IMG/VR virus record: IMGVR_UViG_3300006176_000004
Coordinates: 1 to 64,000 of that record
Strand: one strand, 5' to 3'
DNA: 64,000 nucleotides
From: a virus
Under the pieces are notes generated by a model. The model made no database searches. It saw only the letters and a list, made by a program, of their open reading frames with translations, and was not told the origin of the DNA. Of this stretch, positions 1,501-53,720 are shown piece after piece. The position numbers and the translations under genes are program-made. The first letter of the stretch is position 1. Every line of letters begins with the position of its first letter.

Positions 1501-2210
1501 GCTTGCGCCTTTTCGAAAAGCCAAAGCGTAACGTCATCGAGCCCAGTCGTTCGCCTCCACGCGAACTGACATGCAAGGATTTTGAGCGTCGGAAACTGCG
1601 CCAACCAAGCTTCACCCCAGTCCCGACGCCAGAGCATCCCGGATTGCCCGCGATACGTTATTTCCTCCGGAACATGGTTGAAATACTCGATCGACAGTAT
1701 CCAGCGCTTGGACACGCGGTAAATCTCCGACAGTGCGCGAGGCAAATCAGCCGGCGAAACGTGAATCAGCACCCCGGACGTAAACACCATATCGGCAGCA
1801 TCGTCCGCATAGGGCAATTGGGATAGATCGCCTGGCAGTACGGTCGCAACATCGGCCATAGCCTTGCGGGCAGCCTCGTTCGGATCGCAGGACATGAGCT
1901 TGATTGGCTGGCGTGACCTCTCATAGATCATATCGATGGCGCGGAGGTTATCCCCGCATCCACCGCCAACCTCAATCACCGATGCCGGGAAGGGCTGTGC
2001 AGACGGACTAGCCTTGTTTGCATTCTCCATGGCTTGGAAAATGTCGCCGAATAGACGGGAGCGGTTCTTGATGGATTCCCAATTGCTGGCGCATCGCTGC
2101 TGATAGGCGTCGCCGAACGCCCCAGACCATTCATCAATGGGAACGCCGCCGACGTACATTTTGACTTTCGTATCCGGAGTAACTATCGAGGCCTTAGTGC
2201 CGCGTGGCAT
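1497..2210 (-). CDS. SAM methyltransferase, pseudaminic-acid-associated type
   Basis: 237 residues. The class I SAM-binding motif is EVGGGCGDNLRAI (about residues 80-92), followed by the GVLIHVSPADLP and SIEYFNHVPEEITYRGQ segments typical of the methylases found beside pseudaminic acid genes (the family described by TIGR03587). It probably methylates the sugar or a precursor. The start overlaps the cytidylyltransferase gene by 17 bp. Family assignment rests on remembered motifs. It is among the last genes of the operon, consistent with a tailoring step. Confidence 0.8.
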   Translation of the reverse strand: MPRGTKASIVTPDTKVKMYVGGVPIDEWSGAFGDAYQQRCASNWESIKNRSRLFGDIFQAMENANKASPSAQPFPASVIEVGGGCGDNLRAIDMIYERSRQPIKLMSCDPNEAARKAMADVATVLPGDLSQLPYADDAADMVFTSGVLIHVSPADLPRALSEIYRVSKRWILSIEYFNHVPEEITYRGQSGMLWRRDWGEAWLAQFPTLKILACQFAWRRTTGLDDVTLWLFEKAQA

Positions 2211-2901
2211 TGTTCGGAATCTCCATGAGTTCGGCCTTGGCCAGCATCTTCTCTAATCGCTCAATATCCGAAGGTACGTCGACGCAAAGGTTCAATCCGG
2301 AACGATCAACCTTTTGCTGAACATTTGCACGCCTAATGCCTCGTGTTTTTTGCATCCAGATTGTAGTATGCTCACGATAATGGGGTGCCTTGGCCTTGAT
2401 ATGCGCGGCCTCAAGACAATCATACGAGAATGCCTCGACATCGAAGCCCTTCGGATATGTCCGTTTCGGAAACACGTTGGAGCAATAGTCCAGATTTTCG
2501 GCCTTGAGTAGCGCTAGCACCTCGCCAGCTACGACCGGATCAACAAATGGGCTGTCGCCTGTAATCCTGACGATAGTATCAACACCATACATCGTGGCCG
2601 CGTCGAAATAGCGGCCTAAAACATCGTCCTCTGAGCCGCTGGCGCATGCTATTCCGAGTGAGTTGCAAAGCTGATAGATCGGGATTGAGGAATCATTGGC
2701 TGGGAAGGCTACAACGATGGTGTCCACGAATGGTACAAGCTTTGCCCGCTCTATGACGCGCTCAAGCACTGGCTTGCCGGCGAGCGGCATCAGGACTTTG
2801 CCGGGCAATCGTTTGCTCGTCATTCTCGCCTGGATAATTATGCCGGTTGTGATCAGAACCTCCCCTTGAATGGCATCGTCGGTATCGGTCTGTTTAGCCA
2901 T
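2194..2901 (-). CDS. SpsF-type cytidylyltransferase (CMP-sugar synthase)
   Basis: 235 residues from the ATG at 2901. IIIQARMTSKRLPGKVL is the nucleotide-binding signature of the SpsF/NeuA/KdsB group, and RITGDSPFVDP carries the metal-binding Asp region. Enzymes of this group activate nonulosonic acids with CTP to the CMP-sugar. The ATG start overlaps the preceding gene by 49 bp with its binding site almost touching the ATG. A CTG at 2856, overlapping the preceding TGA as CTGA and behind AAGGGGAGG, would begin the protein five residues before the signature, as is usual in the family, giving 220 residues. Confidence 0.8.
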   Translation of the reverse strand: MAKQTDTDDAIQGEVLITTGIIIQARMTSKRLPGKVLMPLAGKPVLERVIERAKLVPFVDTIVVAFPANDSSIPIYQLCNSLGIACASGSEDDVLGRYFDAATMYGVDTIVRITGDSPFVDPVVAGEVLALLKAENLDYCSNVFPKRTYPKGFDVEAFSYDCLEAAHIKAKAPHYREHTTIWMQKTRGIRRANVQQKVDRSGLNLCVDVPSDIERLEKMLAKAELMEIPNNATRH

Positions 2902-3029
2902 TCCTCGCGTTCTATCTTCTGTCGCTCTATGATGCGCCGTGCTCTATCTCGTGTGCTGTGATCTTCTTGGCCAAGTCGATAGCCCCATGTCTGGACGAGA
3001 TGATCAATTTCTTTTTCAATATCGTTCAT
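2853..3029 (-). CDS. Small hypothetical protein
   Basis: 58 residues starting MNDIEKEIDHLV. The ATG shares one base with the preceding TGA (TGATG). The protein is charged and helical with a basic middle (RDRARRIIERQKIEREE). An in-frame ATG at 3089 is less likely because it would overlap the upstream gene by 60 bp. Function unknown. Confidence 0.6.
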   Translation of the reverse strand: MNDIEKEIDHLVQTWGYRLGQEDHSTRDRARRIIERQKIEREEWLNRPIPTMPFKGRF

Positions 3030-3265
3030 CACGTCACCGCATATGCAAATGGACAGTTCGGCGCATGCAATATCGCGAACTTTCCGCACGTGCAGCGCGT
3101 TTCATTCGGGTGCAGCATTCGATCAAGCTTATCCAATTCAGCCTGTAGATTGAACGGACATGGCTTCTCAACCAGCGCTCCGAGCGGAGTATCGTGAGCA
3201 TCCATGCCAGTTAGGCGAGTAATTGTTTCGGCGGCAGCATCCGTTACTAAGAGATATTTTTTCAT
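3029..3265 (-). CDS. Small protein with a Cys cluster
   Basis: 78 residues. The C-terminal part contains CTCGK followed ten residues later by CPF, a possible zinc or metal site. Start and stop overlap both neighbours by a few bases, so it is translated within the operon. I do not recognise the family. Confidence 0.6.
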   Translation of the reverse strand: MKKYLLVTDAAAETITRLTGMDAHDTPLGALVEKPCPFNLQAELDKLDRMLHPNETRCTCGKFAILHAPNCPFAYAVT

Positions 3266-3711
3266 CCGTTATCTCCCATGATCTTGTGACGAAGCGCTTT
3301 TGCATCCCAAAGCGCGTTATGCTGGATCGCCCCAGGTAGCGTCGTCGGATAAGCGTCAACTCGGTGCAATTCGAATCGTAAGAATCGGATATTGACCATC
3401 TGACCGGGACCAACAACGATCGCTTTGCAGAAATAGGCGATATCGTCGGGCCAATCAGCGATGATCTCCGGACAGCCATCGCCATCCAGAAATGCAGCGA
3501 TCATGTTGCAGAAATTTTTGGTCGCACTTACGAATGGTCTTGCTCCAGGGCATTTAATGATAGGAATGACGTTCTCAGCTATCCATGGCAGCGGATTTGT
3601 TACAAAAGGAGTTGCCATGTAGAGTTCGCGACCATCCTCGCAAACTAGCGCGAGGCTGATCAGGTCGCCGCCCATGCCGTTGAACTCGGTGTCAAGAAAA
3701 TATCGCGTCAT
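3262..3711 (-). CDS. DEDD-type 3'-5' exonuclease-like protein
   Basis: 149 residues from the ATG at 3711, which overlaps the previous stop as ATGA. YFLDTEFNG near the N-terminus is the first acidic motif of RNase H-fold 3'-5' exonucleases; D in EIIADWPDD (middle) and HNALWDAKALR near the C-terminus fit motifs II and III of the Rv2179c-like group. It would act on RNA or DNA 3' ends using two metal ions. It sits inside the sugar operon, a context that does not suggest a sugar role. Confidence 0.7.
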   Translation of the reverse strand: MTRYFLDTEFNGMGGDLISLALVCEDGRELYMATPFVTNPLPWIAENVIPIIKCPGARPFVSATKNFCNMIAAFLDGDGCPEIIADWPDDIAYFCKAIVVGPGQMVNIRFLRFELHRVDAYPTTLPGAIQHNALWDAKALRHKIMGDNG

Positions 3712-3977
3712 CCAATATCTGCCTTTCCGGTCAAAACAAGCCATGCTTCAGAAATCCGATAACGATAGACCGCAATTCGATCCATAAACTGCTTCCATCG
3801 CGAATGATAAATGGGATCATATGGCCGATCGGAATATAGGCTAGCGTTCAAGTTGCGAGCCATCTGCTCGACCGATTCATCCATTCTTTTTTGCAATAAA
3901 TCAGTCATCTCATGCGAAACGTTCATTGGTATCCACCAATCAGCACCGCTCCGATCGATCTTGTAATCCTCGCTCAT
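3708..3977 (-). CDS. Hypothetical protein
   Basis: 89 residues, helical and charged, no recognised motif. Start and stop overlap both neighbouring genes as ATGA. The sequence contains Trp-rich patches (DWWIPM, SRWKQF) but no membrane segment or cysteines. Confidence 0.6.
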   Translation of the reverse strand: MSEDYKIDRSGADWWIPMNVSHEMTDLLQKRMDESVEQMARNLNASLYSDRPYDPIYHSRWKQFMDRIAVYRYRISEAWLVLTGKADIG

Positions 3978-4297
3978 GCTTCAAACTTCCTCTGCACGTT
4001 GCACAAAACCCATCCCCCGTTCGGTCCTTTGATGACCCACGGCAGACCGCAGACATGGCACGGCGCGACCTTGCCACCATATTCCGGAACCGGTGCATCG
4101 CCGATCACTTCGAACATCTTGGATTCCATCACGGAACCGGGAACGACATCGGCTAGCAGTTTGTAGAGGCCATGGTGATTCACACACTTCACGATATCGC
4201 CAGCACGACCGGCGGAAACGTATTTCACTGGTTTAACTCCAATGTCCTCAAGCTGCTGCTCGCGGACTCGATTTATATACTCGTCCCAGGCTATCAT
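3974..4297 (-). CDS. Hypothetical zinc-ribbon-like protein
   Basis: 107 residues starting MIAWDEYINRV; the ATG at 4297 overlaps the TGA of the HisF-like gene. CHVCGLPW at about residue 81 with a later Cys (WVLCNV) is a plausible metal site. The middle, VSAGRAGDIVKCVNHHGLYK, resembles a small beta domain. Function unknown. Confidence 0.6.
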   Translation of the reverse strand: MIAWDEYINRVREQQLEDIGVKPVKYVSAGRAGDIVKCVNHHGLYKLLADVVPGSVMESKMFEVIGDAPVPEYGGKVAPCHVCGLPWVIKGPNGGWVLCNVQRKFEA

Positions 4298-5010
4298 GTT
4301 TCGATCCTCACAGGAACGCCGTGAACTGAAAGATACTCCTTGCAATGTTGAGGAGTGGTGTTTGTGAAAAGGAACATAGACGAAGCCGCGACCGCATGCG
4401 CGCCAGCCTGTATTGCCATCAGCATGTCAGTTGGTGTTCTGCATCCACCATTGGCGATAACCGGGATGTTGACTGCGCCGCATACTTTCGTGAGGGTGTT
4501 AATTTCATATCCGCACTGCACGCCATCACCATCCATGTTGGTCAAGATGATCTCGCCAGCCCCAGCCTGCTCTACATTTCTTGCAAGTTCCGGAATTATG
4601 TCGCGGAGTCTCAATCCATAGTCCATTGCGATAGTGATGCATTGCGCCCCGAACTTCTTCGAAGCCTCTGATATGAAAGCTCGCGATGCTCCAGTGCGCA
4701 AAACAACCTTATCGGCTCCAGCATTGAGCAGCCCACGGATATCATCCAGAGATCGGATACCACCGCCGACTGTCACTGGGCAGAACAACTTGGACGTGAA
4801 TTGCTTGATCTCCTCGAAACGTGGTCCACGGCCATGCGGTGTCGCATCGATATCCAGCAAGATCAGCTCGTCACAGGTACGGTTCTCATAGAGCAGAGCG
4901 GCGGACATCAACGAGCCGACGAAACGGCCGGGGCGCTGGAAGGCGATCGGCTTAACGAGGCCTCTGGTGTCCCAGAGCAAAATGGGTATGATTCTTGTTT
5001 TCAACGGCAT
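4294..5010 (-). CDS. HisF-like synthase subunit (WbuZ / HisF2 type)
   Basis: 238 residues, close to full length for the HisF TIM barrel. RIIPILLWDTRGLVK replaces the histidine-pathway signature in the way seen in the sugar-pathway paralogues; LILLDIDAT, VTVGGGIRS and VIANGGCRT are the phosphate-binding loops. In known systems a HisH2/HisF2 pair delivers ammonia to an amidotransferase that turns an N-acetyl group into an acetamidino group. The amidotransferase is present at 6087-7223, but I see no HisH glutaminase in the window. Confidence 0.85.
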   Translation of the reverse strand: MPLKTRIIPILLWDTRGLVKPIAFQRPGRFVGSLMSAALLYENRTCDELILLDIDATPHGRGPRFEEIKQFTSKLFCPVTVGGGIRSLDDIRGLLNAGADKVVLRTGASRAFISEASKKFGAQCITIAMDYGLRLRDIIPELARNVEQAGAGEIILTNMDGDGVQCGYEINTLTKVCGAVNIPVIANGGCRTPTDMLMAIQAGAHAVAASSMFLFTNTTPQHCKEYLSVHGVPVRIET

Positions 5011-5011
5011 A

Positions 5012-5431
5012 TTAAAACAACTTCACCAATATTCGGCGCCACCATGGCTGTCGTCGATTCCAAGTAGACTTGATGAGAAGTGACGTTAATAAAGGAGAAC
5101 GATACCAGGCTTTCCGATATTGTGCCCGCTTCTCGATAATCTGCCAATTCGAGCGGAGAGCTACGCGTTGATTATGGATGCGCTTGTCAAGCTTTAGGCG
5201 CTCCTGTTTTAATTGTTCGACTTTGGCGGTCAGAGCTTTGCATGTATGCGCAGCAGATTCCATCAATTGGAGCGCTCGGTCGCAACCGGATTCATTGATG
5301 GCAGATACTTCTCTCAGGTCTCCGATTGCCCGATAAGAACGTGCTAGAACATCCTGCCACCAAGCATTAATTCCAGCTTGGTGACGGGCCTTATTGATAT
5401 CGGACAAAAGTTCATCCAAATCCGGTGTCAC
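5012..5431 (-). CDS. Coiled-coil hypothetical protein
   Basis: 139 residues from a GTG start overlapping the acetyltransferase stop (GTGA). The middle (ALTAKVEQLKQERLKLDKRI) is a likely coiled coil and the C-terminus is strongly basic and Trp-rich (WNRRQPWWRRILVKLF), which may contact membranes or nucleic acid. No family recognised. Confidence 0.65.
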   Translation of the reverse strand: MTPDLDELLSDINKARHQAGINAWWQDVLARSYRAIGDLREVSAINESGCDRALQLMESAAHTCKALTAKVEQLKQERLKLDKRIHNQRVALRSNWQIIEKRAQYRKAWYRSPLLTSLLIKSTWNRRQPWWRRILVKLF

Positions 5432-5865
5432 TTTGGTCTCTTGATATAGCTTATCTGCAGAAGCTCAAATCCAAGCGTTTCGAACACGTCAATTGATCGC
5501 GCATTTAGCGGATTGATGTTGGCTAGGAAGCATTCGCCGGGGTGCCGATTCATCAGAAGGCATATTGCAGTCTTGCCGTAGCCTTTGCCATGGTATTCCT
5601 TTGCGATGAAGATGCCGATCTCGTTCTGCTTCGATAGGTAGATCGCGCCGATCGGTCCCATTTCTACGGTCCCCCATTCATCGAAAATGACAAACCATTC
5701 CCGGTACGGGCGCGAATCCACGAAGGCGCAGTGTTGCTCAAATGAGGGCATCTCGCGGTGGCTTATGTTCTGGTGCGGCTCGCGCTCTTTCAGCATCTCA
5801 TATAGGAACTTCGTCGCTACCCGCGTCTCTGCTATCTCGGTGTAGACATCGATAAGTTTGATCAC
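5428..5865 (-). CDS. GNAT N-acetyltransferase (PseH-like role possible)
   Basis: 145 residues from GTG at 5865, behind AAAGG. EIGIFIAKEYHGKGYGKTA is the acetyl-CoA-binding motif A of the GNAT fold, with NPLNARSIDVFETLGF as motif B. In nonulosonic-acid pathways an enzyme of this type (PseH or LegH) acetylates the 4-amino sugar made by the aminotransferase. That role is inferred from the neighbours; a longer reading from 5934 is open but has no better start. Confidence 0.75.
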   Translation of the reverse strand: MIKLIDVYTEIAETRVATKFLYEMLKEREPHQNISHREMPSFEQHCAFVDSRPYREWFVIFDEWGTVEMGPIGAIYLSKQNEIGIFIAKEYHGKGYGKTAICLLMNRHPGECFLANINPLNARSIDVFETLGFELLQISYIKRPK

Positions 5866-5876
5866 GGTTGCGCCTT

Positions 5877-6083
5877 TTATTTTGAGGTACAAAAAGCTCG
5901 AAGCTTGCGATGATAACCATATTCCCTCTCCCAACCTTGGGTTTGATCTTGTATCTCTTTGATTGCACCAGCGCAGCGTTCCATCGTCGAATACTCTTGT
6001 GTAGTAATAGCAACGCCTTCACTATCGCCAAAACTTCCAGCGGAAACCCAAGACACTATGATAATCATAATAGCTGTATTCAT
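5877..6083 (-). CDS. Small membrane-anchored phage protein
   Basis: 68 residues. A hydrophobic N-terminus (MNTAIMIIIVSWVSAG) is followed by TTQEYSTMERCAGAIKEI and a C-terminal Cys, a layout common in small exported phage proteins with a disulphide. The start lies 3 bp after the amidotransferase stop. Function unknown. Confidence 0.65.
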   Translation of the reverse strand: MNTAIMIIIVSWVSAGSFGDSEGVAITTQEYSTMERCAGAIKEIQDQTQGWEREYGYHRKLRAFCTSK

Positions 6084-6086
6084 ATC

Positions 6087-7223
6087 TCAATCTTTCTCAT
6101 TGACGGGACTGAACAGCGGTTGAATATCGCCCCTCACATGCGAGCCCGCGAATAGATCGCGGTTAGTGAAGGTGTCGCAGCCCTCAAGGAACTCATGCAC
6201 GGTCATGCCTAGAGGTTTCAGGACTTCTCTGAGCGGCACGTCAAGATAAGTGGCGGGGAACATGGCGTCACGTTCCGCAGCGATCGGAGCAGCGTCTCTC
6301 CGGCTGATAAGCCCTCGACGAATGTGGTTAGAGAGAAGATCAGTGGCCCGCCCATAGCCATATTTGATGTAACGGAGCCAGTCGTGGGCCCCGACCTGGA
6401 TATTGTCTAAATTTTCATATCCCCAGTAAGAACCCTCAATATGCTTTGGCCAGATTTCAAATCCATGCTGTACAGCTAGTTCGGCATTCGCCAATCCGGA
6501 CCAAGGGAAAAACTGGCCCAAGAAGATTCCCTGCGGCGGCTCGTTTCCTAACTCCGGATACTGATACAACTCACCGATAGGACCAAGTGTAGCCTCCACA
6601 TCGGCGACGCGGAGACCGTTCAATCCGCCGAATTCGTTTAACCAGTCCTGCGTGAGCTTCGTCGCTAATTGGGCCTCCTTCGGTCCTCCATATTCCGCTT
6701 GTGGATTCTCTGCCCAAATAATCAGCGGAATCTTCATCATCGACGCAACACGGACCGGGATTGAAAATATAGTGATATGCTCTGCCCATGAAATATCTCC
6801 AATGGTCTCCAGAGTGAAACGGTTGATCTTACGCCTGATTACGGGATTCGTCTTTACCTCAATGTGGTCGCAGCCAAGTTTGCTGATGTTGTCTAAGTTG
6901 CGCCGGCCAATTGCGGAGAGATGATCCGTCTCGGCAGTGACGGCTAGGACGCGCAAGCCGTAGTCCAATGCTTTTATCACTTGGTAATGACTGTCTTTTC
7001 CGCCCGATACTGGCACGACGCAATCATAGGCCGCGCCATTGTGCCGAGCCTCGCGCCGCGTTTCCACCACCAGATGCTGAAATTGCTTCTCTCTATCGGC
7101 CCAATCGATCAGAGAGCGGGCATCGAATGCCTGGCAGGCTGAGCATAGGCCATCCTCATTCCATGTTAGATCAGGTTTGGAACCGAGTGGATAAAGACAT
7201 TTGCAACAATAAATTCGGCTCAT
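6087..7223 (-). CDS. N-acetyl sugar amidotransferase (WbpG/PseA family)
   Basis: 378 residues, full length. An N-terminal zinc motif (YCCKC ... GLCSAC) is followed by the PP-loop SGGKDS at about residue 72, which binds ATP for adenylation. Known members (WbpG, PseA, LegF-like, TIGR03573) use ammonia from HisH2/HisF2 to convert an acetamido into an acetamidino group on a nonulosonic acid or its precursor. It lies between the DHH phosphoesterase gene (ATGA overlap) and the acetyltransferase. The HisF-like partner is present, the glutaminase is not. Confidence 0.88.
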   Translation of the reverse strand: MSRIYCCKCLYPLGSKPDLTWNEDGLCSACQAFDARSLIDWADREKQFQHLVVETRREARHNGAAYDCVVPVSGGKDSHYQVIKALDYGLRVLAVTAETDHLSAIGRRNLDNISKLGCDHIEVKTNPVIRRKINRFTLETIGDISWAEHITIFSIPVRVASMMKIPLIIWAENPQAEYGGPKEAQLATKLTQDWLNEFGGLNGLRVADVEATLGPIGELYQYPELGNEPPQGIFLGQFFPWSGLANAELAVQHGFEIWPKHIEGSYWGYENLDNIQVGAHDWLRYIKYGYGRATDLLSNHIRRGLISRRDAAPIAAERDAMFPATYLDVPLREVLKPLGMTVHEFLEGCDTFTNRDLFAGSHVRGDIQPLFSPVNEKD

Positions 7224-8026
7224 GGACGCGGTACCGTGAATCCGGCTGCGTTCTTATGGCCACCTCCACCGAAGCGCCGAGCTATCTCACTCACATCGAA
7301 GTCGCCACGAGAACGAAGCGACCAAATCACGTCAGTTCCAGTTTCGGCATACATAGCCGCGAACGGATAACCTTCCGCAGCCAGTTCGCCGCAGACTTCG
7401 GATGACATGAACAGAGAAGCATTGACGACCGGGACCTTGTGACCCGCGATATATCGCAAGAAAGCGTGCTTCTTGGTTTGTTCGACTAAGATGCGGTAAT
7501 AGCGCTGGATGGCGTGCCCTTCCTGAACGAGATAGCCAACGCCCCTGGTCACCAGCCTATCCCACGTGGTGAAATCTTGCGGATACGAGCGTAGCGCGGC
7601 CGTGAACTCATCGACGAAGGCTAGCTTCTTGGTCCACAGATCGCGGTCCTGCAGATAAAGGAAAAACTCAGGGACTTCCTCGTCTGGATGGAAAAATTCC
7701 CATGCCATAACCGCACCGCTGCGGCTCATATCAAAATGGACATCAACGTTTCGACATTCATCCGATAAGCCAGCGAGATCGGCCTCAGCCGTCTTGTGGT
7801 GGTCAAGAACCAAGATCGATTTTGCTTTTGCAGCAAGTTCAATCATGACGTGACATTTGTATGAGAAATCTACGATCGCAACATCAAGGCCTGTTACATC
7901 TGGAGGCTCTTTGCCATAGACGCCAGCGTGATAGGTCACGCAATCGCCATCACGTTTCCACACGGCGAACGCTGCTCCAAAACCATCGTCACATGATCCA
8001 TGGTAAATGCAAAGGTCTGGCGTCAT
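7220..8026 (-). CDS. DHH-family phosphoesterase
   Basis: 268 residues. YHGSCDDGFGAAFAV is DHH motif I, VDFSY motif II, LDHHK motif III, and GGGGHKNAAGF near the C-terminus is the DHHA1 substrate-binding signature. Relatives cleave short oligonucleotides, cyclic dinucleotides or pAp. Both ends overlap sugar genes by 4 bp, so it is made with them. Whether it serves the sugar pathway (for example by removing a nucleotide product) or signalling is unknown. Confidence 0.85.
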   Translation of the reverse strand: MTPDLCIYHGSCDDGFGAAFAVWKRDGDCVTYHAGVYGKEPPDVTGLDVAIVDFSYKCHVMIELAAKAKSILVLDHHKTAEADLAGLSDECRNVDVHFDMSRSGAVMAWEFFHPDEEVPEFFLYLQDRDLWTKKLAFVDEFTAALRSYPQDFTTWDRLVTRGVGYLVQEGHAIQRYYRILVEQTKKHAFLRYIAGHKVPVVNASLFMSSEVCGELAAEGYPFAAMYAETGTDVIWSLRSRGDFDVSEIARRFGGGGHKNAAGFTVPRP

Positions 8027-8676
8027 TTCATATTCCTTATCGATTTGACATATTCCCGAAATTCATCCGGCGTCGATGAAAACGCCTCGTCGTGGCACGG
8101 CACATCCGGCAACCGCAGATGCCGCTCAACCATTGGACATCGATAGCTGACAAACCGCATATTTGCCGAATGATCGGATACCCCGAGCGCGCCGTCTTCC
8201 TTGTCGTCATATTCCGTTGCGCGTAGAATCGTCACGCCATCAACGGGACGCACCGATATGATGATTGGCTTTCCGGTCGCGACTACGGCGTTAATCAAGT
8301 CGCCGTCCAGCATCTCGAATGCGCTTATCTTGTAGCGGGGGCAGTTGAGCATTTCGAGGAAGGCAACATCATCGGGGGAAAAGACCGACGAGAACCAAGG
8401 AATATCAACCGATTTAGCATGCTCAATCATCGGCTCAAACCACTCGCGCGGTGTGTATGTTTCGCGGTACAGGTCAAGTAGAGAGCGTCCGTGGAAATCC
8501 TTGGCGAGTGCTACGACACGAGGATTCTTGGCGCGTTTGGCAGCAAGACGTTCTGGCATGAACGCCTGCCACTTGATTGCATCTGCGCCAGAGGATTTAG
8601 CCTCCGAGATCAAGCGCAGAGCATTGAGATATGAGCCGCCGTGAGTTGAGCCGATCTCTGCTACGATTTCTGTCAT
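8023..8676 (-). CDS. neuB: NeuB-family nonulosonic acid synthase, short form
   Basis: 217 residues from the ATG at 8676. Usual NeuB, PseI and LegI enzymes are about 330-350 residues. The TIM-barrel start EIGSTHGG, DAIKWQAF, YKISAFEM, GVSDHS and MVERH are conserved, so the phosphoenolpyruvate-condensing core is recognisable, but the C-terminal antifreeze-like domain is missing and the barrel is shortened. It would join PEP to a 6-deoxy hexosamine to make a nine-carbon sugar acid. The shortening makes activity uncertain. Confidence 0.82.
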   Translation of the reverse strand: MTEIVAEIGSTHGGSYLNALRLISEAKSSGADAIKWQAFMPERLAAKRAKNPRVVALAKDFHGRSLLDLYRETYTPREWFEPMIEHAKSVDIPWFSSVFSPDDVAFLEMLNCPRYKISAFEMLDGDLINAVVATGKPIIISVRPVDGVTILRATEYDDKEDGALGVSDHSANMRFVSYRCPMVERHLRLPDVPCHDEAFSSTPDEFREYVKSIRNMK

Positions 8677-9335
8677 CGAAAGCACCTAAATGTACTCAAA
8701 TCAGGATAATCGTCCCAAGGAAGATCAGCATTGTGCTTCGGCAGCAAACGAAGTTTGGTAAGCCCGTGCGCCGCCAATTCGGGGGAAAGATATGCGTGCC
8801 AGCCGACCATATCGATGTTGTCGTTCTTGGGTGCGATTCCTTCAGTTCTCCCGTCGAAGCGGGCCTTCCTTAGCCACTCGTCGGCATATGGATTATCGTG
8901 GAGTATGGCTCCAGCCTGAGAAATGCTGAGAATCTTGCCCCAGTGAAACGAAACGCATTGCATTTGTCCCGGCACAAACATTCCGGATGTAAAGCGGCGC
9001 GCAAAATCCCAGACCGGGGTCGGCTTGAGCTGATATCCGCCGACCCAACTCTCGTCACGGAACGCAACCTTGCATCCGGCATGTATGATAGATTGCGGGA
9101 CGCTTATGTACGTATATCGTGGTATCTCCACGATCATAGGATCAAATTCGATCTGGATGCCATCCAGCGTGAGACCAGCGGGCTTGCGCATAATGACCTG
9201 ATCGCAACACGCGACTGCTAGCAATATCGCCATCGTGCATGATGTGGTAGACACAGCGTACCGAGCGCCCGTGTAATCGCACAGCGCGGCCTCAAACTGG
9301 CGTACAACATCGAAAGGATTGAGGGAGACAGTCAC
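8673..9335 (-). CDS. DegT/DnrJ/EryC1 aminotransferase, short form
   Basis: 220 residues from GTG at 9335 overlapping the dehydratase stop (GTGA). Usual members are about 370 residues. ALCDYTGARYAVSTTSCTMA is the family N-terminus, and SFHWGKILSISQAGAIL contains the PLP-binding Lys. The usual C-terminal small domain is mostly gone. It would transfer an amino group to the 4-keto sugar made by the dehydratase (PseC-like step). An in-frame start at 9425 would only add a segment inside the previous gene. Confidence 0.78.
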   Translation of the reverse strand: MTVSLNPFDVVRQFEAALCDYTGARYAVSTTSCTMAILLAVACCDQVIMRKPAGLTLDGIQIEFDPMIVEIPRYTYISVPQSIIHAGCKVAFRDESWVGGYQLKPTPVWDFARRFTSGMFVPGQMQCVSFHWGKILSISQAGAILHDNPYADEWLRKARFDGRTEGIAPKNDNIDMVGWHAYLSPELAAHGLTKLRLLPKHNADLPWDDYPDLSTFRCFR

Positions 9336-10186
9336 CGCAGCATCTCTCGCAACTCGGCAACCGACATCCGCCGTGCTTTGTCGCTCGAATTGCCTTCTGC
9401 CATCGATTCGTGCTGCTTTTCCCATTTTGGGAGCCCGATGATTCGCATCTTCGCCCCCATAGCCTCAGCGAGGTCGCCTAGGCGATAGGCCGGCAGAGTA
9501 GGGATTACGATCTCGCCTCCCCGCATCGTCTCAGCCGTATTCAGGACCAGATCGACGGCCTCTTCTATTGTCATGAAGAAGCGCGTGCAGTCCGGATCGG
9601 TAACCGGAACAGTATCCGCACCTTCGGCCAGCATTTTGCGCCAAGTCGGAACAACCGAACCAGTAGATGAAAAAATATTTCCGTAGCGGCAAACGACGAA
9701 GATCGGGCCGCGTTTTCCACGCATATTATTTGCAGCCAGAAATAATGATTCAGCAAATGCCTTGCTAGTTCCGTAGGGGGAAACCGGCTGAAAAACCTTG
9801 TCGGTTGATAACGCAACAACTTTGGACACATGCGCATCATGCGCAGCCTCAATGACATTACTCGCCCCGCCAATGTTCGTTTTTGAAATTTCAATCGGAT
9901 TGTAGAAAGCTGTCTCGATTCGTTTCAAGGCAGCGGCATGAAATACTACCTCCACGTCTTCCATAGCTCGCCGCAGTCTATCCCTATCTCTTACGTCACC
10001 GATGAACATCCGAAGGCGTTCATGCGGATCAAGCGACGTAAGTTCACGCGCCATCTCGGCTTGGCGGTGCTCTCCCCTGGAATAGACAACGATGCGGTGT
10101 GGGTTGTCCTGTTTCATGGTGAGCAAGCGCTTGACGAGCGCAGTCCCAAAAAATCCTGTCGCTCCCGTCACCAGCACACTTTTCAT
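9332..10186 (-). CDS. pseB: Nucleotide-sugar 4,6-dehydratase (PseB-like SDR)
   Basis: 284 residues. VLVTGATGFFGTALV is the NAD(P)-binding GxxGxxG motif; ALSTDKVFQPVSPYGTSKAF carries the TDK and YxxxK catalytic elements that mark the inverting UDP-GlcNAc 4,6-dehydratase group. This is normally the first committed step toward pseudaminic or legionaminic acid. It is transcribed first among the sugar genes, and its start overlaps the upstream small gene. Slightly shorter than the usual 330 residues at the C-terminus. Confidence 0.85.
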   Translation of the reverse strand: MKSVLVTGATGFFGTALVKRLLTMKQDNPHRIVVYSRGEHRQAEMARELTSLDPHERLRMFIGDVRDRDRLRRAMEDVEVVFHAAALKRIETAFYNPIEISKTNIGGASNVIEAAHDAHVSKVVALSTDKVFQPVSPYGTSKAFAESLFLAANNMRGKRGPIFVVCRYGNIFSSTGSVVPTWRKMLAEGADTVPVTDPDCTRFFMTIEEAVDLVLNTAETMRGGEIVIPTLPAYRLGDLAEAMGAKMRIIGLPKWEKQHESMAEGNSSDKARRMSVAELREMLR

Positions 10187-20340: not shown

Positions 20341-20697
20341 CTACTTCCCTTTCAGAAAGACATTCAGCATGGCCACAACCGCAACGGTATCTTTTCCCAT
20401 CGCCGAATCAACATAGTCTCCATCCGTTTGCTTCATGTTATGGTGCTTTAATAGAAGATTGCGAATTTGTTTTACGCCGCCAGTTGTTATCAGATGCTTA
20501 TCCGGACCGACCGATATTTCCGGTGCTGGCTTTTGAACTTCGGTAGGCTTTTCGTCATGATCACCGAAGTAATTGTCCAGAATCTTGGCGACTGCGAGAA
20601 TGGCAAGTAAATCAACGAAGCCGAGCGAATGTTGATCAATAGCGGCAATAATTATGCCACATGCGGTAATCCATATCGCTTTGGATCGGACTTTCAT
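20341..20697 (-). CDS. Membrane-associated hypothetical protein
   Basis: 118 residues with one or two N-terminal hydrophobic helices (IWITACGIIIAAID, LLAILAVAKIL), then a Pro/Glu spacer and a helical domain. The start overlaps the previous stop (ATGA). No family recognised. Confidence 0.6.
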   Translation of the reverse strand: MKVRSKAIWITACGIIIAAIDQHSLGFVDLLAILAVAKILDNYFGDHDEKPTEVQKPAPEISVGPDKHLITTGGVKQIRNLLLKHHNMKQTDGDYVDSAMGKDTVAVVAMLNVFLKGK

Positions 20698-21200
20698 TTT
20701 ATCCTGTGAGCGGCTTGGGCATAGTCGATGGCTTCACCAAGATCAGGCTGTTCCGTAAATTGCTCCTGTGCCAGTTCTTGCGTTACCTGCCTGCGCTCGG
20801 TTGCAGCAACCGTCAATGCCGCAACTCCGGATTCCTTGGCCTCACGATTCGCTGATTGTATCACCTCGACGATCGTTGCGAGCCTGGTATTGATGCTCGC
20901 ACTATAGGCCGCCAGCATATCATTTCGGCGCTGCAGATAACTGATCTCTTTTTGATAATATTCTCGGTCATCCATAATGGTGTTTTCCAGAGCTTCGTTC
21001 TTATGGGCAAGTTCCCGCAACATAGTCTGTGCTTCCATGAGTTGGTCACACGTGTTGACGTAGTTCCCGCGCATTGTCTCATAGTCATTTAAAGCAACTT
21101 CGATCGGATTTGGCCCCTGAGGTGGCGGTTCTGGCGGAACTTGGCGTTGCAGGACGCGGAGCCATGATGGCGCGGTTTGGCGTAGGGCTTTCTCAGACAT
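20694..21200 (-). CDS. Coiled-coil hypothetical protein
   Basis: 168 residues. A Pro-rich start (VPPEPPPQGPNP) leads to a long helical coiled coil (residues 35-140). Downstream partner of the Rieske gene and coupled to the following membrane gene; all three could form one complex, which is speculation. Confidence 0.6.
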   Translation of the reverse strand: MSEKALRQTAPSWLRVLQRQVPPEPPPQGPNPIEVALNDYETMRGNYVNTCDQLMEAQTMLRELAHKNEALENTIMDDREYYQKEISYLQRRNDMLAAYSASINTRLATIVEVIQSANREAKESGVAALTVAATERRQVTQELAQEQFTEQPDLGEAIDYAQAAHRIK

Positions 21201-21208
21201 GTGGGTTC

Positions 21209-21775
21209 CTAACTATATCGTTTTGCGTAATATTCTGCTCTTGAAATCATGGATGCTCCAAGAATCATGCCTGTATCGGCATTAACTTTGAGTCCATGAA
21301 GTGGGCAGGTGATTATGCCATTGATCGCTGGAGTTGATCCGAGCGGGAATTGTTGGTGGGGACAGACGAATCCGCGCTTTCCTTTCCAGCAAATGCGGCC
21401 CTTAAATCCATCATTCAGTTTTTGCATATTTCCGCCATCTGGACCGACGAATATGTGCTGCTTTCTGAGGCATTTGCGACGGCCGTAGAAGAGTTTTCCG
21501 AGCGGCTGCCAATCAACGTGGCGATTAACGGTTTCTGCGCCATGAAGTGGATTGCTATGAACGTCGTATAAAAGAGCTTTCCGAAGTCTCACAAACCGGT
21601 AATCCAAGTGGTAGTGCTTCAATTGAAAATTTAGAAACTCCTCGTCATCATGCTTGAGACCGATTACCGGCCAATCGCGAACGATATGGTTCCATTCGCC
21701 ATGAACAAGCGGAACCAAATAGTGCTGCCCGACGATCGGCGGTTCCTTGAGGCGGTCCACACGTTGCAATTTCAT
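21209..21775 (-). CDS. Rieske [2Fe-2S] domain protein
   Basis: 188 residues. Near the C-terminus, VCPHQQFPLGS is followed after 16 residues by TCPLHGL, giving C-x-H-x16-C-x2-H, the exact ligand pattern of Rieske iron-sulphur centres. The N-terminal 120 residues do not resemble known oxygenase or cytochrome partners and are rich in His and Tyr. A redox or iron-sulphur structural role in a phage protein is unusual. The assignment is by motif only. Confidence 0.75.
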   Translation of the reverse strand: MKLQRVDRLKEPPIVGQHYLVPLVHGEWNHIVRDWPVIGLKHDDEEFLNFQLKHYHLDYRFVRLRKALLYDVHSNPLHGAETVNRHVDWQPLGKLFYGRRKCLRKQHIFVGPDGGNMQKLNDGFKGRICWKGKRGFVCPHQQFPLGSTPAINGIITCPLHGLKVNADTGMILGASMISRAEYYAKRYS

Positions 21776-22257
21776 GTCCGGAACTTTCTGCCCTTGGGGA
21801 ACGATCGGCTCGGAATCCGTTTCTTTGGCTCCTGCGGCCGTTTTCTGTGCGGTTTGGCAGCTTTCTTGGGCTTGCGGGGCCGGGACTGCTTTGGTGCATC
21901 GGTGGCTTCGGCTGGCTTACTGGAGCGATACCGAGCATAGTTCCATGCCGCTATCACAAATGGGTCCATCCCGGCCCTATCCCAAAAATCACGTTCATTC
22001 ATGGCGTGCTGCTCGGCGTGGCATCCGATCACGGCCGGATATCGTCCAAGACGCGGCCCGCACAGAGGTGTGCACCACATATCGCTTGGCTTTTCTCGCA
22101 TCCCGGTCGGTAATTTCTTCAGTGAAGCGTTTGCCATCCGGATATGAGCGGCCTGAGACATGCCGATTGTTCCGCAAACGCAGCACGGCAGAGTTTTGGT
22201 AAAAGCCAAGAATCCAGGATCGAGGATTCTTGGCTGCCGTTGTCGGAGTTCGGTCAA
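21772..22257 (-). CDS. HNH-type nuclease related to Ref/DUF968
   Basis: 161 residues. LPCCVCG, AAHIRMAN, CTPLCGP and GCHAEQH reproduce the metal-binding spacing of the phage HNH/Ref-like nucleases found in recombination modules. The C-terminal third is very basic (RPRKPKKAAKPHRKRP) and probably binds DNA. It lies a few genes downstream of bet, fitting a role in recombination. Confidence 0.65.
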   Translation of the reverse strand: MTELRQRQPRILDPGFLAFTKTLPCCVCGTIGMSQAAHIRMANASLKKLPTGMREKPSDMWCTPLCGPRLGRYPAVIGCHAEQHAMNERDFWDRAGMDPFVIAAWNYARYRSSKPAEATDAPKQSRPRKPKKAAKPHRKRPQEPKKRIPSRSFPKGRKFRT

Positions 22258-23655: not shown

Positions 23656-23820
23656 TTACCGGCTCAATGGCCCGGAATCGGGGCTTTCGTCTTGAAAGTT
23701 TTTCTTCTTTCCGTTATAGCAGTCGAGGTCGTCATTCCCGGCAAGGAACGACGACCTCTGATTGTCGGGGCGGAATGTCGCCCTCTCGCTGGAGAAATCC
23801 CTATTATTTTGGGATGACAT
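23656..23820 (-). CDS. Possible 54-residue gene in a structured intergenic stretch
   Basis: The ATG shares a base with the upstream TAA (TAATG), and the frame gives MSSQNNRDFSSERATF... ending SGPLSR. Two other frames here also stay open for long stretches, so the coding call is weak. The stretch contains the 9-bp stem at 23725-23758. The 85 bp from 23567 to 23655 hold GC-rich dyads but no gene I can support. Confidence 0.3.
   Translation of the reverse strand: MSSQNNRDFSSERATFRPDNQRSSFLAGNDDLDCYNGKKKNFQDESPDSGPLSR
23725..23758. repeat. Inverted repeat, 9-bp stem
   Basis: GAGGTCGTC (23725-23733) is the exact reverse complement of GACGACCTC (23750-23758) with a 16-base loop. No T-run follows on the transcribed (minus) strand, so it is not a classic terminator; it may be a regulatory or processed RNA hairpin between two leftward gene groups. 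Confidence 0.45.
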
Positions 23821-24326
23821 TAATGGCCGGAATTTTGTTGTAGTTCATCGGGCGAAACCTTAATCATGTTGCTTACGATCTGGAGAATAGCATCCTTGGA
23901 TTCCTGAAAGTCTTTCTTGTTCATTTTCCTGCGTGATTGGCTCTTTGCGGTACGGCGAACCACGAGAGGACCACGAACGATCACGAGGGCAAAATCACCC
24001 AAACCTTGAAATGCTGCCGCGACGCGCAGTGCGGCAGCATTTGATCCAGCGTCGATAATAGTTTCATTAAAATAACCAGCGTCAATGAGGGCTCGTTTTC
24101 TAAGATGCTCTGGCGTCGGGTAGATGTCGGCTAAGTCCTCTGAAAGATGCTTCCATGCCTCACGCAAAAAAGCGAACTCATGACGGTGACTGGCTTCCGA
24201 TCGTTCTTCTATCGGCGCAAGAAAATATTCCTCTCCGACTGTGTAGATTTTGTCGGCATACTTTGGGCGTAGAGGGCGCATAACATCCCCCTCCCAAACA
24301 AAGGCCAGAGGTGGCTCACCACTCAT
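23820..24326 (-). CDS. Conserved phage protein downstream of bet
   Basis: 168 residues. RPKYADKIYTVGEEYFLAPI, then EERSEASHRHEFAFLREAW and PTPEHLRKRALIDAGY, is a pattern I recognise from phage proteins next to recombination genes in alphaproteobacteria, but I cannot name the function. Soluble. Overlaps the bet stop as ATGA. Confidence 0.65.
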   Translation of the reverse strand: MSGEPPLAFVWEGDVMRPLRPKYADKIYTVGEEYFLAPIEERSEASHRHEFAFLREAWKHLSEDLADIYPTPEHLRKRALIDAGYFNETIIDAGSNAAALRVAAAFQGLGDFALVIVRGPLVVRRTAKSQSRRKMNKKDFQESKDAILQIVSNMIKVSPDELQQNSGH

Positions 24327-25309
24327 TTAGATGTCCTCAGTACTCCTGCGATCTTGTCCAATTCCTGGCGTACCTGCAGCGCATCATCTTTGTGTTTGGC
24401 CCAATAGCGTTGCAGTCCCTCTCGGTTGCGAACCATCATGCTTTCCAACTCTTCCGGTTTGGTGCATTTGTGTGCCGCGATCAGGATATCATCCCCGTAA
24501 CGACCGGCCGAAATAAACTTGAGCGTGCCTTCTGCATCGACGAAGGGATATTCGTCATCAAGCATGGAAATCGTTTTCTTGCGGCGTTCCTCGCGCTCCT
24601 GTTCGACCATCTCGGAGGCGGTCAAATCCTGGGCGATGGCGCGGTCCATTTCTTCCGGTGCATAGACACCTGAGAATGTTTCGGGCCAGCCGCCGCGAAG
24701 CGCCTGCATCCTAGCGCATTTGTCGATTTGATTGCGGCCCATCTTGGCCCATAGGCCACTCGAATCTACCGCGAGCCCAGCATCTGCGCCCTCACGCAGA
24801 ACCTTCTTTTTCTTCGGCTTCCCGCTGTCTTTCCACGTCTCGCCGGTATCGATCCAGTCGAACGCATCTGGATTGGTTTTTAGAGGAACAAATTCATCCC
24901 AATAGGCAGTTCCGTTGACGGGATGCCATATTGCCGAGCTGTCTTGCTTCCATAGCGTTACCGTCGATTTTATGATGCCAAGCGGATTTGTCGGACCCTT
25001 CAAAGTCGGATCGTATTCCTTGACTGGTTCGGTTTCCTCAGGGCGATAATCGCGGCAGCGTGCCGCAAGCACTCGGCAACCATCCTGCGTCGTGATGATC
25101 GTCATCTGCCGCTTGGCTTCATCGTTCTTCGAAAAGACGATCGCAATCACCTGTTTCGAGAATGGATCAAGTTGCTTGACCCGCGCATACTCCAAAAAAA
25201 GATTGAATTCGTCATCGTTCGTATCCTTGGCGACGGTACGCTTGATCGTATCAAGCTGGCGACCGGTCCATGGCATTGCCGATTGAGCGATGGAAACTAG
25301 ATTATTCAT
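24323..25309 (-). CDS. bet: Bet/RecT single-strand annealing protein
   Basis: 328 residues. LFLEYARVKQLDPFSKQVIA, MTIITTQDGCRVLAARC and RNQIDKCARMQALRGGWPE are the hallmark blocks of the lambda Bet / RecT family. It anneals complementary strands during recombination and replication. The basic insertion KPKKKKVLRE in the middle is a surface loop. No matching 5'-3' exonuclease (Exo/YqaJ) is seen nearby, so the partner nuclease may lie outside the window. Confidence 0.9.
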   Translation of the reverse strand: MNNLVSIAQSAMPWTGRQLDTIKRTVAKDTNDDEFNLFLEYARVKQLDPFSKQVIAIVFSKNDEAKRQMTIITTQDGCRVLAARCRDYRPEETEPVKEYDPTLKGPTNPLGIIKSTVTLWKQDSSAIWHPVNGTAYWDEFVPLKTNPDAFDWIDTGETWKDSGKPKKKKVLREGADAGLAVDSSGLWAKMGRNQIDKCARMQALRGGWPETFSGVYAPEEMDRAIAQDLTASEMVEQEREERRKKTISMLDDEYPFVDAEGTLKFISAGRYGDDILIAAHKCTKPEELESMMVRNREGLQRYWAKHKDDALQVRQELDKIAGVLRTSK

Positions 25310-25310
25310 G

Positions 25311-25913
25311 TCAGGCTCTCCGAATCGTTAGTGAAACGCCACCGGTTTCCAAGTGGCACCCTGGTATCGCTGGCATTTCCCGATCTAGTGCCGCCATAGC
25401 CTCGCGGCGAGCGTCGATGTTTTTGATCTTATTGATGGCATCGATCTTTTTCTGCCGCTCGCGTAGGACTTTTACGAGGCCAGCCTTATCCAGGCTAGGG
25501 TCCTCGCGGCGCCAAAACTGAGTTGGAATCTCGCTTTCGTTATCGACCTCAACCCGTGGCGTTGCTTTGCCAAGTGAGACTGTACCGATATCGTACTCCT
25601 TGGAAGGCCATTCGGCGATGGTCATAGCCTGCTCAATTAGGCCACGTGTTGCCTCGATTCGCTTCTCCAATCGTGAGCGCCGGCTTTTCAATTCGGCCTC
25701 GCGTGCTCTGCAGCCAGCGATCATGATTTCGTCATCCTCGATCGCAAGGAGCGCCTTACGGATTTCGACATCAAGCGTCGTCTCGCCCTCAAAGGTATCG
25801 GCGAAAGCTTCATGATCGATCTCGCCATCGGCGCCGGTGAGCAACCGAGCCAATTCAAGGCGCAAACTCTTTGCTGCCTCAATAGACCGATGCAGGGTAT
25901 TCGGTTCAGTCAT
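25311..25913 (-). CDS. Gp157-family protein
   Basis: 200 residues starting MTEPNTLHRSIEAAKS. The coiled-coil centre (EAELKSRRSRLEKRIEATRG) and ending DIGTVSLGKATPRVEVDNES ... PGCHLETGGVSLTIRRA are typical of phage Gp157, a family near annealing proteins linked to phage resistance in streptococci. It probably works with Bet. An in-frame start at 26033 is unlikely because it lies inside the next gene. Confidence 0.75.
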   Translation of the reverse strand: MTEPNTLHRSIEAAKSLRLELARLLTGADGEIDHEAFADTFEGETTLDVEIRKALLAIEDDEIMIAGCRAREAELKSRRSRLEKRIEATRGLIEQAMTIAEWPSKEYDIGTVSLGKATPRVEVDNESEIPTQFWRREDPSLDKAGLVKVLRERQKKIDAINKIKNIDARREAMAALDREMPAIPGCHLETGGVSLTIRRA

Positions 25914-25923
25914 AAATTCACCT

Positions 25924-27162
25924 TCAAAATGGAATGGTATCGTCGTCAGCAACGGGAGCACGAACGATCGGAGTGTGCTCAATATGTATCTTGTCCGATC
26001 TGTCCATGACGTGCAGGCGTTCGACCACCGCAAATAACTTCTCGAATAGGAGATTTTGCATATCTCGGCAACAATCAGCTAAGCCTTCGTTCTTGTGCAA
26101 CCATTCCTCGTATAGGGTACTGGCAATGAACCGATGGCCCATATCCAAGGAACGGTGGGCAAGCAAAATGCGCTGATCCCGGACAGTGCCAAACACGCCC
26201 TCTCCAAGGCCATCAACGATCGTGAAATCCTGCCGTGACAGTTTGACTCCTAGCCTCGCGATTAGAGCAATGGCTCGGTCAATCATCTCATTTTCGAACT
26301 CATCCGGTTCGATTTCATTGTACGCCATCTTGATATCAGCGTACTTTTCCCAAAGCTTGATTGCGGCCTGGTTGCAATGGATATTGGCCCGCAGACGGAA
26401 AGCAACCGACATGAAAGCCTCTGACGGCTTCTCGTAAACGCCTGCGAAGTCGAATCCGTTTTCGAACGTACCTTTTGGCGCCATCAAAACGGCCTGGATC
26501 AAGCTTTCATCGTCGCAGCCCGCTACGGCAATCTCCGCATTGTGCTCAAGCACAAATGGATATTTGACGGTGCGGTCTTCCGTCAGTTCCATTTTTGCCG
26601 TCACATTATAGGTAAACAGCGAATGGTTTCCGTGCTTATGGGCACGAACGCCGCGATAGAAAGCCTTGTCACCACTTCCAGCATGGATTTCGCAACCCGT
26701 ACTAGCCGAGATCGGCTTCGTTGCGAGGAAGGTATCATGCCGATTGCGATGGCATTGTTCGATGCCTTCACCGTCAACAGCAAAGACGGTGCCATACTCG
26801 ACTTCTGGCGCGAAATCGTTGATGCTGCCTTCCTCATCAATGCAGTTGCAGTATAGTTCTCGATAGGCCTGCCAGACTTCCCAGTTACGTCCCAACTTCG
26901 TCGTGAAGCCTAATCGTTCGGCACCCATGCAGATGCGGTCGAACGATTCTCCGCGAATGTTCTCGGTCGCAACGGAAAATGGTATCGTCTCGCCATTACG
27001 GATCAGCGTGACCTTGTGTCCGGTCCGCAGAAGCGTGGCGATTGAGAATTTCAGGCCAGTGCCAAAGAACCCGATAGGACTAGCACCGACCTTCACCGAA
27101 ACGCCCATGAGGGCAATCGCGTTGAGATCAATCGGCTCGGCGTTGCAAAAATAGATGGTCAT
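25924..27162 (-). CDS. GHKL-like ATP-binding protein
   Basis: 412 residues. GFFGTGLKFSIATLLRTGH resembles the glycine-rich ATP lid of GHKL ATPases (GxFGxGLK). About residues 340-370 contain LYEEWLHKNEGLADCC, a conserved EExxH-like metal motif. The combination suggests an ATP-driven enzyme that remodels or cuts. It sits between Gp157 and small genes in the recombination module. No exact family name is claimed. Confidence 0.65.
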   Translation of the reverse strand: MTIYFCNAEPIDLNAIALMGVSVKVGASPIGFFGTGLKFSIATLLRTGHKVTLIRNGETIPFSVATENIRGESFDRICMGAERLGFTTKLGRNWEVWQAYRELYCNCIDEEGSINDFAPEVEYGTVFAVDGEGIEQCHRNRHDTFLATKPISASTGCEIHAGSGDKAFYRGVRAHKHGNHSLFTYNVTAKMELTEDRTVKYPFVLEHNAEIAVAGCDDESLIQAVLMAPKGTFENGFDFAGVYEKPSEAFMSVAFRLRANIHCNQAAIKLWEKYADIKMAYNEIEPDEFENEMIDRAIALIARLGVKLSRQDFTIVDGLGEGVFGTVRDQRILLAHRSLDMGHRFIASTLYEEWLHKNEGLADCCRDMQNLLFEKLFAVVERLHVMDRSDKIHIEHTPIVRAPVADDDTIPF

Positions 27163-53537: not shown

Positions 53538-53622
53538 CGCTCTTGCTAATACCGGCCCATTGATCTAGAAACCTCCCATGAACGCGAACCGCCATATTTC
53601 CCCCGATCGACCGCGCCCATCT

Positions 53623-53698: not shown

Positions 53699-53720
53699 TA
53701 ACGACCACACGCTAGCTTTT

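What the first reader, a model, noticed from the sequence alone, without database searches (positions are those of the whole stretch)
21209..21775. Rieske iron-sulphur motif in a phage early gene
The spacing C-x-H-x16-C-x2-H is exact, yet the rest of the protein does not look like a known Rieske oxygenase or ferredoxin. It lies a few genes downstream of bet. A redox-sensing nucleic-acid protein or an electron-transfer auxiliary gene are both possible.
Basis: partly seen in the sequence, partly recalled or inferred. Interest (0 to 1): 0.55.

Follow-up and report, generated by a model that had tools for sequence, protein, structure and literature searches.

The report
Phage Rieske protein with second site
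A gene in this phage's early DNA-recombination region makes a small protein with a convincing Rieske-type iron-sulphur motif joined to another domain that carries its own strictly conserved histidine/aspartate site, and relatives of it occur in phages and plasmids of distant bacteria, suggesting an undescribed kind of small phage redox protein.

Summary
Window 21209-21775 (minus strand) encodes 188 aa with C138-x-H140-x16-C157-x2-H160. It passes Pfam's Rieske cut-off (21.5 against 20.3 bits) and otherwise matches one unannotated phage family, phrog_10072. I assembled 43 sequences (window plus 42 relatives) from viral contigs, Rhizobium, Novosphingobium, and plasmids of Methylorubrum, Leptospira and a cyanobacterium. 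All four Rieske ligands are invariant in 43 of 43; 27 of 27 scanned match Pfam Rieske at E<=1. A confident AlphaFold model (pLDDT 87.9, pTM 0.83) aligns to Rieske structures over about residues 131-178 only. It is not a Rieske oxygenase (catalytic motif in 0 of 43) and not a plain Rieske ferredoxin by extent of match. Best reading: a two-site redox protein in which the Rieske cluster feeds or tunes chemistry at the His/Asp site, used near DNA recombination and modification genes. The cluster is strongly inferred; the second site's metal and the substrate are unknown.

The parts
21209..21775 (-). gene for the 188-aa Rieske-motif protein (phrog_10072 family)
   Evidence: 43-sequence family set
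21386..21775 (-). N-terminal beta domain, residues 1-130, no solved fold matched
   Evidence: AF2 of this part alone pLDDT 83.2, pTM 0.75; Foldseek PDB none at E<=1e-3; VIA best Z 2.3
21593..21652 (-). invariant H42-x-D44-x9-H54-Y-H56-x-D58-x-R60-F61 motif (putative second site)
   Evidence: H42 D44 H54 H56 D58 R60 in 43 of 43, Y55 and F61 in 42 of 43
21242..21385 (-). Rieske-like cluster-binding subdomain, about residues 131-178
   Evidence: 42 of 43 VIA rows shown are Rieske proteins, best Z 3.9, rmsd 2.0 over 40 residues; Pfam 137-173
21296..21364 (-). C138-x-H140-x16-C157-x2-H160 ligand motif
   Evidence: ligands in 43 of 43
21772..22257 (-). upstream ORF (TTG start), ATGA overlap, weakly HNH-endonuclease-like
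   Evidence: PHROG HNH endonuclease E 4.1e-4, best match phrog_18962 of unknown function 4e-6; no Pfam match; overlap
20694..21200 (-). downstream ORF, 8 bases after the stop; no PHROG match
23820..24326 (-). NinB/Orf-like recombination mediator
   Evidence: phrog_15346 E 5.8e-43 and phrog_319 NinB E 7.1e-9
24323..25309 (-). RecT/Bet-like annealing protein
   Evidence: phrog_2780 E 3.8e-28
25311..26033 (-). Mu Gam-like end protection protein (TTG start)
   Evidence: phrog_253 E 2.5e-19

Best explanation
The gene encodes a small two-site redox protein of phages and related plasmids. Its C-terminal stretch of about 48 residues resembles the cluster-binding half of a Rieske domain and most probably holds a [2Fe-2S] cluster on two Cys and two His. 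Its N-terminal domain, a small beta sheet or barrel, presents H42, D44, H54, H56, D58 and R60, probably on one face of a beta hairpin, as a second site that most likely binds a metal or substrate. The proposed mechanism is that a host reductase or ferredoxin reduces the Rieske cluster, and the cluster delivers electrons one at a time to chemistry at the His/Asp site, as in Rieske oxygenases but on a much smaller scaffold without their catalytic domain. The likely substrate is a nucleotide, a nucleic-acid base or a nucleic-acid-bound protein, because the gene sits in early recombination and DNA-modification regions. Shown here: the family, the two invariant motifs, the local Rieske resemblance in sequence and predicted structure, the mobile-element context. 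Inferred: the cluster itself, that the second site binds metal, electron flow between the sites, and the substrate class.
For: Rieske ligands invariant in 43 of 43 sequences that form 12 linkage clusters at 40% identity. Pfam Rieske in 27 of 27 scanned at E<=1. PDB profile hits: 23 of 24 are Rieske proteins. 42 of 43 structural rows shown are Rieske, over about 131-178. H42 D44 H54 H56 D58 R60 in 43 of 43, including 10 sequences that no pattern containing this motif selected: L052-L056 and L066 do not fit HYH[VL]DYR, the only motif pattern, and L002, L004, L006, L007 came from tblastn. Two of these groups are weak in tblastn (Leptospira and Oscillatoria E 4e-3 to 1e-2), but a profile built without them finds both at 1.3e-25 and 2.4e-23. 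The polar invariants are all at even positions in strands E31-44 and E50-57 or just after, while odd positions 55 and 61 are aromatic. Full-length pTM 0.83 suggests the two parts have a defined relative placement. dN 0.26 and dS 3.2 (L010/L014), dN 0.27 and dS 2.2 (L029/L040) indicate purifying selection, with dS near saturation. Neighbour ORFs include DNA methylases, Mu Gam, YqaJ, RNA ligase.
Against: No experiment. The Rieske oxygenase iron motif D-x2-H-x4-H is in 0 of 43. No reductase partner was recognised among the 25 Pfam families shown for 69 window ORFs (21 of 46 families not shown). Neighbours vary from locus to locus, so no conserved partner points to a substrate. Several search patterns contained H42 or the HYH motif, so its invariance is partly selected. 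One pair, L042/L043, gives dN/dS 0.76, though on very few changes.
Confidence: 0.45

Rival explanations
1. A pure electron carrier: a phage Rieske-type ferredoxin that hands electrons to a phage or host enzyme; the N-terminal motif is a docking surface or structural polar network.
For: Closest structures are stand-alone Rieske ferredoxins and oxygenase Rieske domains; small size; single-gene cargo in varied contexts.
Against: A docking surface would not be expected to keep three His, two Asp and one Arg in 43 of 43 diverged sequences when no neighbour is shared by most loci. No oxygenase or reductase is consistently adjacent among the families shown (25 of 40 shown).
Confidence: 0.25
2. A redox- or iron-sensing nucleic-acid-binding regulator: the Rieske cluster is the sensor and the small beta domain binds DNA or RNA.
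For: Lies near recombination genes; weak structural echoes of small barrels such as CAP-Gly, Tudor and ribosomal proteins (Z 2.1-2.3).
Against: Those echoes are at noise level. The invariant set is acidic and histidine-rich with a single invariant Arg, unlike a typical nucleic-acid surface (judgement). No regulator-like or DNA-binding family is matched.
Confidence: 0.15
3. A zinc protein: the Cys2His2 set holds structural zinc and the protein is a nuclease-like or scaffold protein.
For: Rieske sites can hold zinc: a Zn form of the Rieske protein PetA from Thermochromatium tepidum has been crystallised (PMC10492824, passages read). A His/Asp-rich site could be hydrolytic. Two of 43 members have a 13-residue spacer, just under the 15-47 given for Rieske proteins in a review (PMC12445004, passages read).
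Against: Sequence and structure hits are Rieske proteins, with no zinc ribbon among the PDB hits listed; spacing is 16 or 17 in 41 of 43. In that Zn form zinc is held by the two Cys and two chlorides, so invariance of both His argues for the cluster.
Confidence: 0.12

Closest known systems
Rieske-type ferredoxins (BphA3 1fqt/2yvj, CarAc 1vck, toluene dioxygenase ferredoxin 3dqy)
   Same: Cluster-binding subdomain: Cys/His box pair, rmsd about 2 A over 40-41 residues.
   Different: The match covers only about residues 131-176; here a domain of about 130 residues with its own invariant motif precedes it.
Rieske non-heme iron oxygenases (dicamba monooxygenase 3gke, GxtA/SxtT)
   Same: Best sequence profile hits (E 1.7e-5, 3.9e-5 and 4.5e-5); a Rieske cluster accompanied by a conserved His/carboxylate site.
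   Different: No oxygenase catalytic-domain Pfam match among 27 scanned, D-x2-H-x4-H in 0 of 43, length 164-276 aa, and the putative site lies before, not after, the Rieske part.
phrog_10072 (PHROGs v4, unknown function)
   Same: Same family: 25 of 27 members match at E<=0.001, nearly full length for the window protein.
   Different: The PHROG carries no functional annotation in the library scanned.

Membership tests
Rieske [2Fe-2S] domain (PF00355) | C-x-H ... C-x2-H ligand boxes | tested here: met
   Exact in the window protein; 43 of 43 sequences; spacing 16 in 28, 17 in 13, 13 in 2
Rieske [2Fe-2S] domain (PF00355) | score above the curated profile cut-off | tested here: met
   21.5 bits against 20.3 for the window protein; 27 of 27 members match at E<=1, best 1.3e-7, cut-off not shown per member
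Rieske [2Fe-2S] domain (PF00355) | complete Rieske fold, base sheet plus cluster-binding subdomain | tested here: inconclusive
   VIA aligns about 131-178 only, best Z 3.9; strands before that region did not align
Rieske [2Fe-2S] domain (PF00355) | bound [2Fe-2S] cluster with Rieske spectrum | not testable with these tools
   needs purified protein
Rieske non-heme iron oxygenase alpha subunit | C-terminal catalytic domain with mononuclear iron motif D-x2-H-x4-H (motif recalled) | tested here: not met
   0 of 43 carry the motif; no catalytic-domain Pfam match among 27 scanned
Rieske-type ferredoxin | small stand-alone Rieske domain matching along its length | tested here: inconclusive
   local match only; protein is 188 aa with an additional N-terminal domain
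phrog_10072 | profile match along most of the length | tested here: met
   residues 35-174 on profile 26-168 of 178, E 6.5e-9; 25 of 27 members

The most novel reading that the evidence does not exclude
This family is a new class of compact two-centre Rieske enzyme, in which the Rieske cluster-binding subdomain is joined to a separate small beta domain that provides a mononuclear metal site (drawn from H42, D44, H54, H56, D58). It would do oxygen-dependent chemistry in about 180 residues, independently of the Rieske oxygenase alpha subunit, and would act for phages on nucleic acids or their precursors, for example to modify or protect DNA. The named carriers (Rhizobium, Novosphingobium, Methylorubrum, Leptospira, Oscillatoria) are aerobes or oxygenic (recalled), which fits.
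Probability: 0.28. Interest if true: 0.88.

Novelty: new variant of a known kind. Interest (0 to 1): 0.6.

Why it matters
If the protein is a redox enzyme, phages encode a Rieske chemistry that current annotation does not show, on a scaffold far smaller than the known Rieske oxygenases, and a family labelled 'unknown function' gains a testable active site. It would also point to an oxygen- or iron-dependent step in early phage DNA metabolism. Even as a plain electron carrier it would be an iron-sulphur protein that mobile elements of alphaproteobacteria, spirochaetes and cyanobacteria carry without a neighbour shared by most of them.

Tried and rejected
Chance motif: rejected (family). Rieske oxygenase: rejected on the catalytic motif and domain. 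Known anti-phage defence protein: PADLOC gave only weak scattered hits in 1-2 of 27 members, best E 0.0044, taken as noise. NCBIfam: 0 families. Single-protein scans of viral and genome contigs with the window protein found no relative; a subset alignment was needed. tblastn with the cyanobacterial member found only itself in plasmids. Named phages: no relative in INPHARED by tblastn with five different members as query (at E 1e-5, at 0.1, at 0.01; at E up to 10 gave 16 records that I take as noise). Known fold for the N-terminal part: Foldseek found no PDB match at E<=0.001 and none in BFVD (full-length model only); VIA was at noise level for this part. This does not prove a new fold. A version of the N-terminal part without Rieske: none in 385 alphaproteobacterial genomes at E<=1e-4 (at most 10 first-look candidates scored per genome; the only match is the known member L016). 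Conserved neighbour as a clue to substrate: none shared by most loci. One plasmid tblastn hit, Gloeothece (H24, E 0.3), covers 17% of the query, in the Rieske part only, and was not counted as a member; another Leptospira hit (H22) was not fetched. In print: ten library searches listed no paper on a phage Rieske protein of this kind. I saw listings only, except passages of PMC10598087 (Rieske-linked pheophorbide oxygenase domain in eukaryotic algal viruses), PMC12445004, PMC10492824 and PMC6078989. The library holds open-licence papers only.

Rows dropped before the 43-sequence count: 35 loci (L003, L005, L015, L030, L032, L033, L035-L039, L041, L044-L047, L049-L051, L057-L065, L067, L068, L071-L073, L075, L078). 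A check afterwards found both motifs in 35 of 35 and 96.6-100% identity to a kept sequence over the aligned part; L033 aligns over 152 of 176 residues because its N-terminus differs. L001 is the window itself. Kept set: window, 38 loci (37 from viral contigs and genome contigs, 1 from the genome search) and 4 plasmid loci. Start codons were chosen by eye; for several GTG or TTG starts the sequence was begun one codon later.

Full report
The finding is real. The minus-strand ORF at 21209-21775 encodes 188 aa with C138-x-H140-x16-C157-x2-H160. The motif occurs once in the six frames of the window; 30 first-order Markov controls averaged 0.17 occurrences of the loose form and none of CPH-x(13-17)-CPxH. 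Pfam Rieske is the only Pfam family matched, above its cut-off. The PHROG family phrog_10072, of unknown function, matches residues 35-174. NCBIfam gives nothing.

Context. The gene overlaps the upstream ORF (weakly HNH-like) as ATGA and is followed 8 bases later by another ORF. Further upstream, on the same strand, lie NinB/Orf-like, RecT/Bet-like and Mu Gam-like genes. The window is part of an 86,566-base virus record with terminase and portal genes. By megablast, the 24 kb around the gene has no match in the INPHARED phage collection.

Family. tblastn against plasmids found the Methylorubrum extorquens AM1 megaplasmid (3e-19), a 41-kb Rhizobium rhizoryzae plasmid with terminase and portal genes (5e-23), Leptospira interrogans plasmids including lcp3 (4e-3 to 1e-2) and a cyanobacterial plasmid (8e-3). 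The weak ones are confirmed by a profile built without them, at 1.3e-25 for the Leptospira plasmid p5 and 2.4e-23 for the cyanobacterial plasmid. lcp3 is reported to yield tailed phage particles on mitomycin C induction (PMC6078989, passages). Pattern-seeded searches gave 6, 27, 3, 20 and 11 viral loci, many shared between searches, and 5 genome loci (four Rhizobium, one Novosphingobium). A profile search found the family in 1 of 396 genomes of the Novosphingobium order, 3 of 297 of the Rhizobium family and 1 of 398 of the phylum, counting the seed genome each time (only 8-11 first-look candidates scored per genome). It is therefore a rare gene. Most of the loci come from contigs classed as viral; the plasmid carriers are phage-like in Rhizobium and Leptospira, a conjugative plasmid in Oscillatoria and a megaplasmid without listed genes in Methylorubrum. 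One 146-kb virus contig carries two diverged copies, L052 and L055.

Conservation. In 43 sequences, window included (40 clusters at 90% identity, 12 at 40%), the following are invariant: C138, P139, H140, C157, P158, H160, and also H42, D44, H54, H56, D58 and R60. Y55, F61, P36 and L162 are kept in 42. The gap from HxD to HYH is 9 in 27, 8 in 15 and 10 in 1. Near-identical loci, 35 in number, were left out; both motifs are in 35 of 35. Many loci were found with patterns that include H42 or the HYH motif, so its invariance is partly selected. But L052-L056 and L066 do not fit the HYH pattern and must have been found by the other one, and L002, L004, L006 and L007 came from tblastn: these 10 carry the motif without such selection. 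Patterns contain none of the Rieske ligands. Of seven pairs tested for substitution rates, two give dN/dS about 0.08 and 0.12 (dS 3.2 and 2.2, near saturation), one 0.27, one 0.76 on very few changes, and three had saturated dS.

Structure. AlphaFold2 with a 27-sequence alignment gave pLDDT 87.9, pTM 0.83. No PDB or BFVD entry matches at Foldseek E<=0.001. In the VIA second look 42 of the 43 rows shown are Rieske proteins, aligned over about residues 131-178, best Z 3.9, rmsd 2.0 over 40 residues; these Z values are low in absolute terms, and the argument rests on their specificity. Sequence profiles agree: 23 of 24 PDB hits at E up to 10 are Rieske proteins, including all 9 at E<=0.001, best dicamba monooxygenase at 1.7e-5; the other is a bacteriocin at E 4.9. 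The N-terminal 130 residues folded alone (38 sequences) kept the same strands (pLDDT 83.2, pTM 0.75) and gave only noise-level matches to small barrels and others. Strands E31-44 and E50-57, separated by a short turn, probably form a hairpin in which the invariant polar residues fall at even positions and the conserved aromatics at odd ones. I infer that one face carries the His/Asp set.

Mechanism. A [2Fe-2S] Rieske cluster is the best reading of the C-terminal part (about 85% in my judgement); zinc cannot be excluded, and a zinc form of one Rieske protein is known in which zinc is held by the two Cys and two chlorides (PMC10492824, passages). In Rieske oxygenases the cluster lies about 12 A from a mononuclear iron in the neighbouring subunit and is linked to it by a conserved Asp (PMC12445004, passages). 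The present family has a Rieske motif and a separate His/Asp set but lacks the oxygenase domain and motif. It may work in a similar way, as a two-site redox protein, without being a member of that family. The substrate is unknown. I scanned 113 neighbour ORFs, three from the window and 110 chosen from the 201 picked out mechanically around 36 loci. Among the 25 of 40 Pfam families shown are MT-A70, C5 and N4/N6 DNA methylases (10 matches; one ORF may count twice), Mu Gam, YqaJ, RNA ligase and PAPS reductase, with no partner common to most loci. This favours nucleic-acid metabolism only weakly.

Rivals are a plain ferredoxin-like carrier, a redox-sensing nucleic-acid binder, and a zinc protein; each is kept with a test. 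Ten literature searches listed no description of such a phage protein; the library holds open-licence papers only. A PHROG for the family exists, so the family is known as a cluster, and one member is annotated 'Rieske 2Fe-2S domain-containing protein' in its plasmid record, but the second-site anatomy appeared in nothing I searched.

Noticed in passing
window 1497-10186, minus strand: A sugar-nucleotide cluster: Polysacc_synt_2 (9332-10186), DegT aminotransferase-like (8673-9425), NeuB (8023-8685), HisF-like (4294-5010), cytidylyltransferase (2194-2901), methyltransferase (1497-2210). It resembles a pseudaminic or legionaminic acid pathway carried by a phage (pathway recalled; Pfam matches).
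   Followed up: partly
window 53461-53797: Three tRNA genes in a row: Asn(gtt), Pro(tgg), Thr(tgt).
   Followed up: no
L052 and L055 (IMGVR_UViG_3300035182_000695, 146 kb): One virus contig carries two diverged copies of the Rieske-motif gene; the L055 copy has a C-terminal extension of about 100 residues.
   Followed up: no
L009, L017, L020, L022 (also L003, L014 further away), downstream of the Rieske gene: A conserved ORF (example in L009 begins MSVYVDDMKARFG) recurs in six loci, in four of them starting within about 610 bases of the Rieske gene (cluster 3); it resembles DUF4031 (recalled, not tested).
   Followed up: no
window 25924-27162, minus strand: 412-aa protein matching phrog_8203 of unknown function very strongly (E 8.2e-82), next to the Gam/RecT genes.
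   Followed up: no
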